Assembly (NCBI RefSeq): GCF_017086365.1
Contig: NZ_CP070969.1
Coordinates: 5,332,001-5,396,000 of the forward strand
DNA length: 64,000 bases
From: Paenibacillus tianjinensis
Lineage (GTDB): Bacteria; Bacillota; Bacilli; Paenibacillales; Paenibacillaceae
Reading direction: 5' to 3'
Below, in pieces: positions 10,890 through 26,404 of the stretch. The notes below the pieces were generated by a model that was given only the letters and a program-made list of their open reading frames with translations, did no database searches and was not told the DNA's origin. Positions within the stretch are counted from its first letter, which is position 1. The number at the start of each line of letters is the position of its first letter. A program made the position numbers and the translations under genes.

Positions 10890-12599
10890 CTAAATTCCGG
10901 AAAGTTCTTCTTCCGTAAACTTATATTCAGAGAAAACCGACTTGAGGTCCAGAGGCTCGAAGGTCAAAGAATAGAACCCTGCCGCAAGCGCCTTTTCATC
11001 ACAATGAAAGCTGTACACTTCTGTATACTGCTCAGACTGTTTTATTTTATAGCTCATCGTATATATGTTATCCATTTTGCTGATTTTCAGAAAGAAGGGA
11101 TTATCCAGGAAAACCTCATCATACATTAGATCGTTCAATACACCGAGATGCTCGATTTGCAAGGACTGTCCCTGGTTCGTTCCAAATAGCAACTTAGTGC
11201 CATTGCCGAATTTCAGCATAAGCCCGCTTTTGAAATATCGTCCGACCGAAGCATTGATCTGAACTTTCGCTTCCAGATTGCAATTTTTATGTTCGCCAAC
11301 AGCCATAAGCGCTTGAGGTGCATTATCGTAAGCAATGCTGCTGAGATTCAGCTTCTCGCTCGTATGAATTAATATAATTTGATCTTGCTGAATTAGGATT
11401 TCCGCATTCTTTTCATTGATTGGAGTGAATGGCGAACTATAGGTGTCTGCAGTACTGAATTCTCCGCTCCCCTCAACAGCTCCAGACAATACGCCGATTA
11501 GTTGAGATCTAAAGCAGTCCTCCTTACCAATTAAGGCCTCTATTGAGGAATCGACATCCGCAAAATCCAGTTTATGCTTCAGTGTCTTATAAATCAGCTT
11601 GGACTTTACCTGTCCCCATTCTACATCCAGTTGTTCACGACTGGCCCGTAAGCTGTCCACCTCCGGTTTTTCAGCGCCGGCTTGCTCTATGAACGAAAAA
11701 ATCAGCTGATAATAGACTGATCTCATATTCATAACGAGAAATGTCGATTCCAGCAGCCTCGATGTATTATCGGTATATCCGTAAGCCCTAATCACCCGGA
11801 TAATCTCCCGTTCAGGATACTTCACTGCCGCTTGCCCGGCTTCCACTTCCCTAAGATGAACCAGATGGTCCTTGAGAGCATCCTCCATACTCAGACCACA
11901 TGTGCTGTTCCCGTGATCAGAAACCGTCCAGAAATACATTGTCCCTTCCTGTTTGGCAAAGGTGTGGGCATAGCCCGCCAGGGTATCGTAGAGCATACTG
12001 AACGGAATGGTGAAATCCTTGTATAGGGCATTCGTCCCCCCGTCAATTTGCAGCGAATCGAGCACATAGCAAATATCCCTGAGCTGGTCGTAGCCCTTAA
12101 TCAGAAAGAAATGTTGATGATGTTTCGCCTTATACCAATTGTCATAGTAAATGGTGTATAAATCTCCGGGGACAAGCACGCGCGCATTCCTGTCAATCTG
12201 CTCAATAATCCTTCGTCTAAAATCGGCCTCGTCAACAACAGTGTGCGTCTGAATGTCCAGCAGGAACCGTTTCTTCAGATAACCTTCATAATATTCAAAA
12301 AAGGATTCCAGCAAATCCTCCATGCTCATCGGCACCTCCTGAAACCAGGATTCAGCCATATACGTGCTGTAGTAGGTCACATACATCAAAAAAAGGCTAT
12401 TGTACCGCTGCTGAAAGGAACCAAATATCATTCCGAGCGGCTTATAAAAGCAGTTCAGCTGCTTCCAAGAAAAACGATCATCATTGGGAAGCAGCTGGTC
12501 AATGATTCTGACATATCTGCTGTTAAGCGCCTGCGGAATAACCTTCATCCGGTTGTCTATGGCCACATCGAGCTCCGTCACATCGAGTTTTCGATCCAT
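10890..12599 (-). CDS. BtrH-like (papain-fold) acyltransferase with C-terminal beta-sandwich domain
   Basis: A 569-residue two-domain protein. Residues about 1-330 resemble the butirosin biosynthesis protein H / NRPS-associated papain-like family: LVPGDLYTIYYDNWYKAKHHQHFFLIKGYD matches in layout the His-containing strand, with His160/161/163 and Asp181 as candidate catalytic residues and Cys50 (QLNCFY) as candidate nucleophile. BtrH moves an acyl group from an acyl carrier protein to an amine. Residues about 400-560 look like a concanavalin-A-like/DUF1349 sandwich (LEAKVQINASVGRYFKSGLML). It is the last gene of the leftward BMC cluster, overlapping the MATE gene by 22 bases; an ACP heads the cluster, which fits an ACP-dependent transferase. 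Substrate unknown; the catalytic residues are inferred. Confidence 0.6.
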   Translation of the reverse strand: MDRKLDVTELDVAIDNRMKVIPQALNSRYVRIIDQLLPNDDRFSWKQLNCFYKPLGMIFGSFQQRYNSLFLMYVTYYSTYMAESWFQEVPMSMEDLLESFFEYYEGYLKKRFLLDIQTHTVVDEADFRRRIIEQIDRNARVLVPGDLYTIYYDNWYKAKHHQHFFLIKGYDQLRDICYVLDSLQIDGGTNALYKDFTIPFSMLYDTLAGYAHTFAKQEGTMYFWTVSDHGNSTCGLSMEDALKDHLVHLREVEAGQAAVKYPEREIIRVIRAYGYTDNTSRLLESTFLVMNMRSVYYQLIFSFIEQAGAEKPEVDSLRASREQLDVEWGQVKSKLIYKTLKHKLDFADVDSSIEALIGKEDCFRSQLIGVLSGAVEGSGEFSTADTYSSPFTPINEKNAEILIQQDQIILIHTSEKLNLSSIAYDNAPQALMAVGEHKNCNLEAKVQINASVGRYFKSGLMLKFGNGTKLLFGTNQGQSLQIEHLGVLNDLMYDEVFLDNPFFLKISKMDNIYTMSYKIKQSEQYTEVYSFHCDEKALAAGFYSLTFEPLDLKSVFSEYKFTEEELSGI

Positions 12600-13984
12600 T
12601 CTTCACTTTGCCCCCTTTGATTTGGGTAAGCTGTATTCTCCGTTAAATTATGAATCCACTTTTTGGACAAGAAACGGGGCACCCCGATAATCAGCTTTGC
12701 AAATTCCTCCGACATAATGAAAATGTACACCCAGTAAATGGGCAGATGCAGCCGGTAAACCGCAATATAAGCCATTGGGATGCCGACTGCCCACATGGCT
12801 GCACTATTTTGCACAAGCGTAAAGACTGTATCTCCTCCGGCGTTCAGTACACCCTGAATCAGTATCATATTGACAACTTTTACGCAGAGGAAACAAGACA
12901 TGAGGAGCAGCAGCGTTCTGGCCGCCATGTGTGCCTCAGCTGACATGCTGTAGAGGGTAAGAACCGGTCCTGAGAGCAAGTAGATGCAAGCCCCCACAAT
13001 TAGAGAGCCGGTAAAAGCGAGCCATATGAAACTTCGCGAATAACTGAGCACCTTGTCCTTGTGTCCCGCGCCGATTCTGTTTCCAATCAGTACATTGCAG
13101 GCTCCCGAGAGACCGGTGAACACTACAAAAGCGATCTGTTCCACCGTACCCGCCACACTATAGGCAGCTACTGCCTGAGTACCTATATGGGCATACGATA
13201 TGTTGTAAAAGTTCAGGCCTAACGACCAAAATGTTATCCCTAAAACAAGGGGGATCGTCGTTATAAAATACTTTCTTACAAACCCTGAACCAACCGAAAA
13301 GAAATCCCTGATCCTTTTAAAGACGAGCGGTATCTTAAAAATATAAACTGAACTGACAATTAATCCGAACTCTACCAGCCTTGAGACCAGCGTGGCGATA
13401 GCGCTTCCCTTCAGCCCGAGCGCAGGAAACCCCAAATTCCCAAAGATTAGCAAATAATTAAGCAGTGTATTCAGACTTAACGCAAACACACTGACAAACA
13501 TTGGCAGCTTGGCATTCCCTATGCTCCTCAACACCGCCGAATAGCAGAAGGTAATGGAGGTAGCCACGAAACTGAAGCCGATGAGCCTTAAAAAGATCCT
13601 GCCCTGTTCAATAACCTCCGGATCATTGGTGTATATGGACAGGATGCGGCCGGGAAAGAAAATGGACGCAAAGGAAAATAACAGGCTGACGGATAAACTG
13701 AGCAGCAATGAAAAGCCAAGGACAGACCGTACATGATGTACCTCCTTCTTTCCCCAAAATTGCGCGGCGAATATAGATGCCCCGGTGCTGATTCCGTTAA
13801 GCAGACAGATGTAAATAAAGGTGAAGTTGCTGGACAGCCCTACGGAGGCGATTGAGGTCTCTCCTAGCCGTCCCACCATAATCACATCAATGAAATTCAA
13901 AGACGACGTGGCCAGCTGTTGAATGATAATGGGCAGGGCAATGACAAAGATGCTTCTCCTAAACTCTTTATCTCTAAATCCCAA
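12578..13984 (-). CDS. MATE-family multidrug/metabolite exporter
   Basis: Twelve-helix antiporter of the MATE family, about 468 residues. The N-terminus (FVIALPIIIQQLATSSLNFIDVIMVGRLG) is the diagnostic MATE helix 1 and loop; the second half repeats it around FSVGSGFVRKYFITTIPLVLG. MATE proteins export cationic or aromatic compounds in exchange for Na+ or H+. I take the TTG at 13984, six bases after GGAGGA; another TTG at 14002 overlaps the ubiX stop. As the only transporter inside the BMC cluster, it probably exports the product. Confidence 0.88.
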   Translation of the reverse strand: MGFRDKEFRRSIFVIALPIIIQQLATSSLNFIDVIMVGRLGETSIASVGLSSNFTFIYICLLNGISTGASIFAAQFWGKKEVHHVRSVLGFSLLLSLSVSLLFSFASIFFPGRILSIYTNDPEVIEQGRIFLRLIGFSFVATSITFCYSAVLRSIGNAKLPMFVSVFALSLNTLLNYLLIFGNLGFPALGLKGSAIATLVSRLVEFGLIVSSVYIFKIPLVFKRIRDFFSVGSGFVRKYFITTIPLVLGITFWSLGLNFYNISYAHIGTQAVAAYSVAGTVEQIAFVVFTGLSGACNVLIGNRIGAGHKDKVLSYSRSFIWLAFTGSLIVGACIYLLSGPVLTLYSMSAEAHMAARTLLLLMSCFLCVKVVNMILIQGVLNAGGDTVFTLVQNSAAMWAVGIPMAYIAVYRLHLPIYWVYIFIMSEEFAKLIIGVPRFLSKKWIHNLTENTAYPNQRGQSEEWIENSM

Positions 13985-13998
13985 ATTGTCTCCTCCGT

Positions 13999-25790: not shown

Positions 25791-26078
25791 TCAATTCATT
25801 TCAATTCCTTTGTTGTCGAGAGCAACAATATCAAAATCAAAATTAGGAATGACATTCAACTCATAATCAATATTTCTTAGAATACACATCTCCATTACAA
25901 GAGCCTCTGCTTCCCTGACTTGTCCCAGACTGCCTCTAAAAATGATGACAAGCGATCCTCCCATCGTTTCATGAAGTACCTTGACCAGTTCGACATATGT
26001 ATTCTTAACAATTAAATCGAACACACGAATTACATCTGCCAAACCTCTTACCTTTACCGTTGCCAGAGCCCGATTCAT
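25791..26078 (-). CDS. Divergent BMC-domain protein
   Basis: A 95-residue protein aligning by eye along its length with single BMC-domain shell proteins: ALATVKVRGLADVIRVFDLI corresponds to the first strand-helix, VELVKVLHETMGGSLVIIFRGSLGQV to the central strands, and YELNVIPNFDFDIVAL replaces the usual HVIPRPH end. The pore segment (HETMGGSL) and tail differ strongly from canonical hexamers, so it may be a minor facet protein or a hexamer with another job. ATG at 26078 follows AAGGGG; an upstream TTG is less likely. It follows the ACP gene by 56 bases. Confidence 0.72.
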   Translation of the reverse strand: MNRALATVKVRGLADVIRVFDLIVKNTYVELVKVLHETMGGSLVIIFRGSLGQVREAEALVMEMCILRNIDYELNVIPNFDFDIVALDNKGIEMN

Positions 26079-26134
26079 ATTGCCCCTTCTCTCCAATAAT
26101 TTATTTGGAGTTCTTCTTCGCTCCCCTCTGCCAG

Positions 26135-26404
26135 TCAGTCCCCGTCTGCATGCAACAACTGGCGCCCGACGTAGGTAATCAGTTCTGAAATTCGTGTGAT
26201 TGTCTCCGTAGACAGCATAGCGGTATCGATTTCAAAATCGAAGGCTGTTTCGATCTCCACAATTAATTGGATAATCTTGATCGAATCGATGCTATAGTCG
26301 GACAATAGATCCGACTCCTCTTGAATCTCCTGAGGGTGGGCGACCAATTTCAGCTCGTAAGCTACGATATCACGAATAACATCCAAGATTTGGACTCTAT
26401 CCAT
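26135..26404 (-). CDS. Acyl/peptidyl carrier protein
   Basis: Small carrier protein (89 aa) with SDYSIDSIKIIQLIVEIE; Ser41 in the D-S-I motif is the phosphopantetheine attachment site. The four-helix pattern and acidic helix II are standard. It is the first gene of the BMC cluster, preceded by AAGGAG, while its likely loading enzyme (adenylation protein) and likely offloading enzyme (BtrH-like) are encoded downstream, so intermediates are probably carrier-bound. A discrete ACP next to BMC genes is uncommon. A 4'-phosphopantetheinyl transferase is not encoded in the window. Confidence 0.9.
   Translation of the reverse strand: MDRVQILDVIRDIVAYELKLVAHPQEIQEESDLLSDYSIDSIKIIQLIVEIETAFDFEIDTAMLSTETITRISELITYVGRQLLHADGD

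What the first reader, a model, noticed from the sequence alone, without database searches (positions are those of the whole stretch)
10890..26404. Microcompartment gene cluster with an aminohydroxybenzoate-type biosynthetic pathway
Seen: one leftward gene set combines BMC-H, EutN/CcmL pentamer and a divergent BMC protein with an ADH-synthase-like aldolase, DHQ-synthase-II-like cyclase, adenylation enzyme, ACP, acyl-CoA-dehydrogenase-like enzyme, UbiD, UbiX, TrpB2-like enzyme, DgcN/DgcA-like pair, BtrH-like transferase, GNAT and MATE exporter. Known: GriI/GriH homologues of the aldolase and cyclase make 3-amino-4-hydroxybenzoate; UbiD enzymes decarboxylate para-hydroxybenzoates; known metabolosomes carry aldehyde dehydrogenase and phosphotransacylase, absent here. 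Inference: a shell-associated biosynthetic (not catabolic) pathway, possibly via 3-amino-4-hydroxybenzoate and 2-aminophenol, ending in export. I recall no characterised BMC of this kind.
Basis: partly seen in the sequence, partly recalled or inferred. Interest (0 to 1): 0.95.

Follow-up and report, generated by a model that had tools for sequence, protein, structure and literature searches.

The report
Microcompartment for building an aromatic molecule
In three distantly related bacteria the genes for a small protein-shelled compartment sit in one gene cluster with genes for what is likely a pathway that builds an amino-aromatic compound, so this would be a bacterial organelle for making rather than breaking down a molecule.

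Summary
The 15.8 kb cluster (window 10853-26675) is a clean insertion in its host. Its three shell genes and an eight-enzyme core recur in Ruminiclostridium sufflavum (Bacillota) and Glycomyces luteolus (Actinomycetota), where no other shell genes were found, so the BMC genes are no chance insertion. The cluster's TrpB2-like enzyme carries a C-terminal tail that 8 of 8 aligned housekeeping TrpB2 proteins lack: disordered linker, short F..WW...F helix, and a small terminal domain that resembles the ends of microcompartment-associated proteins. It is a predicted cargo protein. UbiD is far closest to AroY (protocatechuate decarboxylase), which fits 3-amino-4-hydroxybenzoate as substrate. Best reading: aldolase and cyclase make 3-amino-4-hydroxybenzoate, UbiD releases 2-aminophenol, and TrpB2 inside the shell joins it to serine, giving an aminotyrosine-like amino acid that is tailored and exported. 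Gene content, conservation and the tail are shown; every reaction is inferred. It differs from metabolosomes (no aldehyde dehydrogenase or PduL in the cluster) and from the 2-aminophenol-degrading ARO BMC (no ring-cleaving dioxygenase). No activity or organelle has been tested, and the supplementary list of the 2021 BMC catalogue could not be checked.

The parts
26135..26404 (-). acyl carrier protein
   Evidence: PF00550 36.9 bits, cut-off 20.8; homologue 41% in R. sufflavum cluster
25791..26096 (-). divergent single-domain BMC shell protein (likely start at ATG 26078)
   Evidence: PF00936 34.0 bits; counterpart 50% in R. sufflavum and by alignment in Glycomyces L040 2837-3124
25754..25767 (.). 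operator-like palindrome TTCAAACGTTTGCA, copy 1 (upstream of the GNAT-to-BtrH gene set)
   Evidence: 2 matches in the window, 0 in 100 shuffles; LacI-type operator is a recalled resemblance
25648..25661 (.). operator-like palindrome TTCAAACGTTTGCA, copy 2, 106 bp from copy 1
25024..25473 (-). GNAT acetyltransferase
   Evidence: PF00583; in all three clusters
24200..25048 (-). ADH-synthase (GriI)-type aldolase
   Evidence: PRK07226 290 bits over cut-off 241, TIGR01949 289.7 just under 299.45; best PDB relative MJ0400 2qjg
23092..24237 (-). DHQ-synthase-II / 3-amino-4-hydroxybenzoate-synthase (GriH)-type cyclase
   Evidence: PF01959 317 bits; own clade in tree
21548..23068 (-). stand-alone adenylation enzyme; specificity pocket conserved with R. 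sufflavum
   Evidence: PF00501; NRPS A domains, prolyl-carrier ligase and DltA among PDB relatives; alignment
20439..21551 (-). acyl-CoA-dehydrogenase-type flavoenzyme, predicted aminoacyl-ACP dehydrogenase
   Evidence: RedW, PigA and MbtN models among hits, all below cut-off; prolyl-PCP dehydrogenase 5zw0 among PDB hits, not the best one
20146..20424 (-). EutN/CcmL pentamer shell protein
   Evidence: PF03319; also in R. sufflavum and Glycomyces
19846..20133 (-). BMC-H hexamer shell protein
   Evidence: PF00936; 85% R. sufflavum, 67% Glycomyces
18076..19782 (-). TrpB2-like PLP enzyme, 568 aa, with predicted cargo tail
18325..18357 (-). linker helix around FEAWWNRNF (residues 476-486 of TrpB2), candidate encapsulation peptide
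18079..18270 (-). C-terminal piece of TrpB2 (residues 505-568) holding the terminal domain (about 521-568)
   Evidence: pLDDT 93-96 for the domain; matches the C-terminus of TIGR02536, E=1e-6, 28.5 bits, below that family's whole-protein cut-off 152.6
16634..18058 (-). UbiD decarboxylase, AroY-like
   Evidence: AroY 5ny5 407.6 bits, best non-AroY hit 208.9
15616..16647 (-). DgcN-like DUF1611 protein
   Evidence: PF07755 and PF17396; NCBIfam DgcN below cut-off
14591..15619 (-). DgcA-like enolase-superfamily racemase/epimerase, KxK and distal Lys present
13999..14598 (-). UbiX flavin prenyltransferase
   Evidence: TIGR00421 176.2 bits over cut-off 108.9
12578..14002 (-). MATE exporter
10890..12599 (-). 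BtrH_N-like protein
   Evidence: PF14399 29.1 bits, just below cut-off 29.7; a gene with a weak BtrH_N match also follows the R. sufflavum cluster
10853..26675 (.). whole inserted segment
   Evidence: blastn against G029, where 85 bp lie between the same flanks

Best explanation
The cluster encodes a three-protein microcompartment shell together with enzymes that likely build an aromatic amino acid from 3-amino-4-hydroxybenzoate, with a tailed TrpB-like enzyme predicted to sit inside the shell and to capture 2-aminophenol. Inferred course: (1) the ADH-synthase-type aldolase would join aspartate semialdehyde to dihydroxyacetone phosphate and the DHQS-II-type enzyme would cyclise the product to 3-amino-4-hydroxybenzoate; (2) the AroY-like UbiD, with prenyl-FMN from UbiX, would decarboxylate it to 2-aminophenol; (3) TrpB2, brought to the lumen by its tail, would condense 2-aminophenol with the aminoacrylate made from serine or phosphoserine, giving a 3-aminotyrosine-like amino acid, while the shell keeps the small, leaky, easily oxidised aminophenol near its acceptor; (4) DgcN/DgcA and GNAT would N-acylate and epimerise the product; (5) in the window strain and R. 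sufflavum only, the adenylation enzyme, ACP and flavoenzyme would load and desaturate the amino acid, and a BtrH-like protein would transfer or release it; (6) an exporter (MATE here, two ABC transporters or LysE elsewhere) would pump the product out. Shown: gene content, its conservation, the tail, and family placement of the enzymes. Every reaction and the organelle itself are untested.
For: The same shell trio and core (TrpB2, UbiD, UbiX, DgcN, DgcA, ADHS, DHQS, GNAT) occur in three genomes; TrpB2-UbiD-DgcN-DgcA-UbiX keep their order in all three, ADHS-DHQS are adjacent in all three; 2 of 72 fetched loci plus the window, all-or-none. In R. sufflavum and Glycomyces no other PF00936 or PF03319 genes were found. 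The tail is in 3 of 3 cluster TrpB2s and 0 of 8 housekeeping ones aligned; R. sufflavum also keeps a tail-less copy. In a tree of 48 chosen rows all 17 housekeeping rows split from the 31 others (26 tailed, 5 not) with 100/100 support. The tail domain folds confidently; alone it matches the end of TIGR02536, named an ethanolamine utilization protein (E 1e-6); the R. sufflavum tail matches TIGR02536 (E 0.0036) and more weakly the end of PduM (0.031), and the Glycomyces tail only weakly the end of PduM (0.083) and a kinase model (0.076). A TIGR02536-like protein with the same ending sits in this genome's second BMC locus. UbiD: AroY 407.6 bits, next non-AroY 208.9. The aldolase aligns to MJ0400 with the DHG, MMYPRG and lysine positions kept. 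Two type-I DHQ synthase family genes are present. GriI/GriH chemistry: PMC10179220, passages. Enclosing 2-aminophenol metabolism has been proposed for ARO BMCs: PMC10470539, abstract and passages. The adenylation pocket is conserved between window and R. sufflavum although overall identity is 47%.
Against: No reaction is tested. The aldolase falls just below the ADH-synthase equivalog cut-off and the cyclase far below the BagC/FevH cut-off (215.3 against 750), so its product could differ. UbiD shows no extension beyond the AroY-aligned part (5-471 of 474), so the step that makes 2-aminophenol may lie outside the shell. No natural TrpB acting on an aminophenol is known to me (recalled); an engineered tyrosine synthase from TrpB exists (8egy). 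The tail helix is not at the chain end, unlike the encapsulation peptides described in PMC12339742, and F..WW...F is in only 11 of 27 proteins of 508 aa or more. Family matches of the tail are below whole-protein cut-offs, and the Glycomyces tail has no clear match. Some TrpB2s of the same clade lack the tail (5 of 31 rows), and one of them shares a contig length with a DHQS, so the pathway may work without a shell. Members of the DHQS clade stand without the other genes in Anaerobacterium, Sorangium and two Spirochaetes loci. Glycomyces lacks the adenylation enzyme, ACP and flavoenzyme (no hit), so the end product need not be the same. The roles of DgcN/DgcA and of the adenylation enzyme are guesses.
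Confidence: 0.5

Rival explanations
1. The shell and the pathway belong together, but TrpB2 joins a different nucleophile (for example 3-amino-4-hydroxybenzoate itself, an indole or another phenol) and UbiD works at another point, for example as a late decarboxylase. The product is then another amino-aromatic compound.
For: The equivalent of the indole-contacting glutamate (ETGAGQ; role recalled) is invariant in all 35 aligned TrpB2s, and UbiD carries no visible targeting signal. In grixazone biosynthesis 3,4-AHBA is activated by an AMP-binding protein rather than decarboxylated (PMC10179220, passages).
Against: The AroY-like UbiD fits 3,4-AHBA directly. The residue after the active-site lysine is Ala in 26 of the 27 long TrpB2s (Pro in one) and Leu, Pro or Thr in the 12 listed housekeeping-type ones P0157-P0168, which hints at another substrate than indole but not which one.
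Confidence: 0.25
2. A catabolic BMC of the BUF kind: the enzymes break down an aminohydroxybenzoate-type compound or an aromatic amino acid taken up from outside.
For: All functionally assigned BMCs other than carboxysomes that I know are catabolic (recalled), and ARO BMCs are proposed to degrade 2-aminophenol (PMC10470539).
Against: No aldehyde dehydrogenase, PduL, alcohol dehydrogenase or ring-cleaving dioxygenase is among the Pfam hits of the 16 cluster genes. An aldolase and cyclase of the 3,4-AHBA-building kind, an ACP with an adenylation enzyme, and exporters point to synthesis. Three ARO loci checked here gave no hit to the cluster's core enzymes.
Confidence: 0.1
3. The shell genes are hitchhikers on a natural-product cluster and the enzymes are not encapsulated.
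For: Tail-less TrpB2 relatives exist, and the DHQS clade has members without a shell in their genomes.
Against: Shell trio, tail and core travel together across two phyla, and the tail resembles ends of microcompartment-associated proteins.
Confidence: 0.1

Closest known systems
ARO bacterial microcompartment (Actinobacteria; PMC10470539 and PMC8217296, passages read)
   Same: 2-aminophenol theme; [quoted passage not shown]
   Different: ARO is proposed to break 2-aminophenol with LigB-type dioxygenase and an aldehyde dehydrogenase. Three ARO-type loci read here (LigB and Aldedh confirmed by Pfam) have no hit to TrpB2, ADHS, DHQS or UbiD, and their BMC-H proteins are about 40% identical
BUF (BMC of unknown function, no aldehyde dehydrogenase; PMC8217296, passages)
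   Same: BMC locus without aldehyde dehydrogenase
   Different: BUF is a holding class. I could not read the supplementary locus list, so whether one of its members is this cluster is not checked
Grixazone-type GriI/GriH 3,4-AHBA pathway (PMC10179220, passages)
   Same: homologous aldolase and DHQS-II-type cyclase, plus an AMP-binding enzyme
   Different: no shell genes are mentioned there; here UbiD/UbiX, TrpB2, ACP, flavoenzyme and DgcN/DgcA follow
TrpB2 (TrpB-like PLP enzyme, TIGR01415; PDB 6hul, 4qys)
   Same: whole catalytic core, 394 bits to 6hul
   Different: C-terminal tail, mostly SHKAN instead of SHK(L/P/T)N, separate clade
AroY protocatechuate decarboxylase (PDB 5ny5)
   Same: nearly full-length match, 407.6 bits
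   Different: set in a BMC cluster; substrate inferred to be the amino analogue

Membership tests
Bacterial microcompartment (shell) | BMC-H and BMC-P (EutN/CcmL) genes in one locus | tested here: met
   also in R. sufflavum and Glycomyces
Bacterial microcompartment (shell) | cargo enzyme with targeting extension | tested here: inconclusive
   TrpB2 tail with linker, helix and terminal domain; function of the tail not tested
Bacterial microcompartment (shell) | assembled polyhedral particle | not testable with these tools
   needs microscopy
Metabolosome (catabolic BMC) | CoA-acylating aldehyde dehydrogenase and PduL or other phosphotransacylase in the locus | tested here: not met
   no such family among the Pfam hits of the 16 cluster genes; satellite loci elsewhere in the genome were not searched
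ARO BMC | LigB-type (pfam02900) dioxygenase genes and ARO aldehyde dehydrogenase | tested here: not met
   absent from cluster; three ARO-type loci gave no hit to the cluster core
ARO BMC | shell of one BMC-P, one canonical and one divergent BMC-H | tested here: met
   same composition, but BMC-H sequences only about 40% alike and no hit with the divergent BMC
GriI/GriH 3,4-AHBA synthesis | ADH-synthase-type aldolase next to DHQS-II-type cyclase in a genome that has other DHQ synthase genes | tested here: met
GriI/GriH 3,4-AHBA synthesis | curated cut-off of ADH synthase (TIGR01949) or of the BagB/FevI and BagC/FevH models | tested here: not met
   289.7 against 299.45; BagB/FevI 190.2 against 500; BagC/FevH 215.3 against 750
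GriI/GriH 3,4-AHBA synthesis | product is 3-amino-4-hydroxybenzoate | not testable with these tools
   needs enzyme assay
TrpB-like family TIGR01415 | score over the curated cut-off | tested here: met
   567.8 against 518.85
AroY-type UbiD | closest solved relative is AroY, nearly full length | tested here: met
   VdcC model 327.6 against cut-off 650, not met
DgcN/DgcA pair | scores over NCBIfam equivalog cut-offs | tested here: not met
   244.8/480 and 150.3/400; distant relatives only

The most novel reading that the evidence does not exclude
A new class of anabolic bacterial organelle: a protein shell that holds a natural aminophenol-to-amino-acid synthase (a TrpB-type enzyme that joins 2-aminophenol to serine) and traps the aminophenol made by UbiD, so that a BMC is used to build and export a specialised metabolite rather than to degrade a nutrient or fix CO2.
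Probability: 0.42. Interest if true: 0.95.

Novelty: new variant of a known kind. Interest (0 to 1): 0.86.

Why it matters
The BMCs assigned so far that I know of fix CO2 or break down nutrients. A conserved BMC that would serve biosynthesis widens what these organelles are for, names a likely new encapsulated enzyme (TrpB2), and offers a compact natural three-protein shell with a candidate cargo tag for engineering pathways with leaky or oxidisable phenols. The proposed reaction, a natural TrpB-type enzyme acting on an aminophenol, is directly testable with two or three purified proteins.

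Tried and rejected
Chance insertion of shell genes: rejected by recurrence in two further genomes and by the tail. Only possible shikimate route: rejected, two type-I DHQ synthase family genes in the host; which of them serves the shikimate route was not tested. Membership in ARO: rejected by gene content of three ARO-type loci. 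Anaerobacterium as a fourth member: rejected; its DHQS stands without hits to the other cluster genes in the 21 kb read, and its three BMC-H genes on another contig lie with three EutN-type genes, a DeoC-family and an aldehyde-dehydrogenase-family gene, that is, a different BMC locus. Sorangium and the two Spirochaetes: no BMC family match in those genomes. Adenylation specificity: the pocket reads D-P-M-S-I-F-G-V/I-A-K when aligned by eye through LgrA to PheA numbering recalled from memory; the leading D suggests an alpha-amino acid, but it fits no code I recall, so no substrate is named. Folding the TrpB2 tail alone gave low confidence (pLDDT 61.8), so no fold search was made; a PDB sequence search with it found nothing at E up to 1. 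DHQS has no relative in the PDB by sequence at E up to 0.001. Plasmid records: 12 matched TrpB2 at E up to 1e-100, none over 80% of the query, so no tailed copy; 5 of the 12 were listed. Literature: microcompartment with 3-amino-4-hydroxybenzo gave 0 papers; with UbiD 5 papers, none about a BMC of this kind by title and abstract start; with aminophenol 11 papers, 10 listed, of which ARO is the relevant one; searches with natural-product and anabolic terms listed 15 of 2,600 and 15 of 167 papers, none of this kind by title; the catalogue search listed 10. Only open-licence papers are held, and supplements could not be read.

In my notebook I first wrote that 12 of 12 relatives show the flanks together; the correct count is 11 of 12, the twelfth being G220.

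Full report
WHAT IS THERE. The host is a 6.27 Mb single-contig genome; gene content and neighbours look like a Paenibacillus-type Firmicute, which is inference. In the window, minus strand, sixteen genes run from the ACP (26404) to the BtrH-like gene (10890). The ACP and divergent BMC form a small leading unit; GNAT, ADH-synthase-type aldolase, DHQS-II, adenylation enzyme, flavoenzyme, EutN, BMC-H, TrpB2, UbiD, DgcN, DgcA, UbiX, MATE and BtrH-like follow, several of the listed ORFs overlapping by a few to a few dozen bases. Between the two units lie two exact copies of TTCAAACGTTTGCA, 106 bp apart; 100 shuffles gave none. They look like operators of a LacI-family regulator, which is recalled and not tested; no regulator gene is among the sixteen.

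AN ISLAND. In 11 of 12 same-genus relatives a DUF1779 homologue (31-88% identical) lies within the 1.5 kb read downstream of the response regulator that flanks the cluster at window 26676. In the closest, G029, 85 bp lie between the flanks where the window has 15,823 bp. The twelfth, G220, has at the same site only GNAT (92% identical), the first 45 residues of the aldolase and the last 94 of the BtrH-like protein, that is, a deletion derivative in that assembly. Within the GTDB genus, 1 of 100 genomes (the window's own) has the DHQS of this clade; the only other match at E of 1e-60 or better is 41% identical. G+C of the cluster's genes is 0.42-0.50 against 0.52-0.53 in the immediate flanks.

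CONSERVATION. An alignment of 44 DHQS homologues (of 620 found, 120 listed; alignment) was scanned against genome contigs and gave 72 loci. By tblastn with the 16 window proteins, 2 of 72 carry the rest of the cluster. Ruminiclostridium sufflavum has BMC-H 85%, divergent BMC 50%, EutN 56%, GNAT 47%, ADHS 61%, DHQS 59%, adenylation enzyme 47%, flavoenzyme 45%, TrpB2 65%, UbiD 62%, DgcN 64%, DgcA 38%, UbiX 58% and ACP 41%. Glycomyces luteolus has BMC-H 67%, TrpB2 49%, UbiD 51%, DgcN 44%, DgcA 28%, UbiX 42%, ADHS 40%, DHQS 51% and GNAT 31%. The other 70 show only DHQS, mostly with ADHS, and at most weak adenylation-enzyme hits (21-28%). Glycomyces also has EutN (L040 2589-2840) and a divergent BMC-like protein (L040 2837-3124; by alignment only, the Pfam search did not find it). 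In both genomes these are the only shell genes found. The order TrpB2-UbiD-DgcN-DgcA-UbiX and the pair ADHS-DHQS are the same in all three; the other genes move. MATE is replaced by two ABC exporters in R. sufflavum and by a LysE-type exporter in Glycomyces, and a gene with a weak BtrH_N match (25.8 bits, below cut-off) follows in R. sufflavum. Glycomyces gave no hit for adenylation enzyme, ACP and flavoenzyme and has instead an ornithine-cyclodeaminase-type and a PrnB-like gene. The type is rare: DHQS of this clade (E up to 1e-98) in 2 of 58 genomes of the R. sufflavum order (itself and an orphan in Anaerobacterium), in 1 of 394 sampled genomes of the Glycomyces class, and a match to the tailed TrpB2 P0144 at E up to 1e-150 in 1 of 397 of its order, while 21 of 397 of that order have some BMC gene.

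THE TrpB2 TAIL. The cluster TrpB2 is 568 aa; housekeeping TrpB2s end near residue 450. Linker, a conserved F..WW...F stretch and a terminal domain ending in VITPLA or VVTPLA plus about 15 residues are in 3 of 3 cluster copies and 0 of 8 housekeeping copies aligned. R. sufflavum carries both kinds; the other 10 genomes of its family showed one match each at E up to 1e-120, and the three of those aligned are tail-less. In a database search 46 proteins passed E of 1e-150 among the 8000 candidates scored. Of these, 27 are 508 aa or longer, including Actinoplanes and Plantactinospora entries; 24 of the 27 match the first tail pattern, 26 of 27 a looser one (one is marked partial), and 11 of 27 have F..WW...F. 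In a tree of 48 chosen rows the 17 housekeeping rows separate from 31 others with 100/100 support; of the 31, 26 have the tail and 5 do not, and the labels need three changes, which allows one gain and two losses. Left out of the tree were P0123 (the window's own), P0132, P0145 and P0155 (short or odd) and three of the eight housekeeping loci. An AlphaFold2 model from 35 sequences has a confident core, a disordered stretch from about 455 to 520 with a low-confidence helix at 476-486, and a confident terminal domain at about 521-568, pLDDT 93-96. Alone, the window tail matches the C-terminus of TIGR02536, named an ethanolamine utilization protein, at E 1e-6, and P0129 does so at 6.7e-5; P0144 did not at 0.01. 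The R. sufflavum tail matches it at 0.0036 and the C-terminus of the microcompartment protein PduM at 0.031; the Glycomyces tail matches only the end of PduM (0.083) and a kinase model (0.076), both at chance level. All are below the whole-protein cut-offs. A 246-aa TIGR02536-like protein with the same ending belongs to the second BMC locus of this genome. Encapsulation peptides are short helices joined to cargo by disordered linkers (PMC12339742, abstract and passages); the layout here is similar, though the helix is not terminal.

ENZYMES. UbiD: AroY 407.6 bits, next non-AroY 208.9; AroY acts on protocatechuate, the hydroxy analogue of 3,4-AHBA. Aldolase: MJ0400 is the best PDB relative (228 bits) and the DHG, MMYPRG and Lys positions are kept in the alignment (that they are catalytic is recalled). 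GriI and GriH make 3,4-AHBA from aspartate semialdehyde and DHAP (PMC10179220, passages). The host has two PF01761 genes. A DHQS tree of 50 chosen rows puts window, R. sufflavum and Glycomyces in one broad clade of 41 rows (98/96) with many members of unknown or shell-free context; a pair with Clostridium cavendishii lies next to it and Metabacillus-type sequences further off. DgcA keeps the KxK and distal lysine of racemases in all three (role recalled). The flavoenzyme keeps a Glu in FER at what I recall as the catalytic position of isovaleryl-CoA and prolyl-carrier dehydrogenases; its best PDB hits are ordinary acyl-CoA dehydrogenases, with prolyl-carrier dehydrogenases lower.

HOW IT LIKELY WORKS. 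Inferred: aldolase and cyclase make 3,4-AHBA; UbiD releases 2-aminophenol; TrpB2 in the lumen adds a serine-derived alanyl group; tailoring and export follow. The shell would hold a small, membrane-permeant, oxidisable intermediate, the logic proposed for ARO BMCs in the opposite metabolic direction (PMC10470539, passages). Confidence: that this is a real, conserved BMC locus of a kind not seen in the papers I could search, about 0.85; that it is biosynthetic, about 0.85; the exact reaction scheme, about 0.5.

LIMITS. No reaction, particle or product has been observed. The supplementary locus list of the 2021 BMC catalogue could not be read, so an entry there is possible. Same-contig pairs in metagenomes (P0005/P0125, P0010/P0126, P0038/P0130, P0039/P0137, besides R. 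sufflavum itself) rest on equal contig lengths in two listings and are inference.

Noticed in passing
window 60373-64000, continuing to L006 10782: A second, different BMC locus on the plus strand: UbiX, UbiD, BMC, unknown 345-aa protein, two more BMC genes, TIGR02536-like 246-aa protein, EutN, adenine deaminase, putative cyclase (PF04199), DUF1989. It also has a UbiX/UbiD pair.
   Followed up: partly
window 25648-25661 and 25754-25767: Two exact palindromic repeats TTCAAACGTTTGCA, 106 bp apart, with no regulator gene in the cluster.
   Followed up: partly
L161 (G220), about 12976-13988: Deletion derivative of the cluster at the same chromosomal site in a close relative: GNAT whole, aldolase start and BtrH end only.
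   Followed up: partly
L037 13-7747: NRPS piece with methyltransferase and thioesterase, two ABC-type transporters (by ORF sequence) and a chorismate-binding enzyme directly before the R. sufflavum BMC cluster, resembling a yersiniabactin-type siderophore locus (recalled resemblance).
   Followed up: partly
L040 11598-14343: Glycomyces cluster ends with an ornithine-cyclodeaminase-type gene, a LysE-type exporter and a PrnB-like heme-enzyme gene.
   Followed up: partly
L038 and L041, around 6800-13300: Spirochaetes genomes with DHQS of the same clade; beside it an AMP-binding ligase (Pfam in L038, a look-alike ORF in L041) and an amidohydrolase-like ORF, no BMC genes in either genome.
   Followed up: no
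P0133-P0137: Tail-less TrpB2 relatives inside the tailed clade; one shares a contig length with a DHQS, hinting at a shell-free version of the pathway.
   Followed up: partly
L194, L195, L196: Three ARO-type loci (LigB and aldehyde dehydrogenase genes by Pfam, two BMC genes each) found while searching the Glycomyces order.
   Followed up: yes
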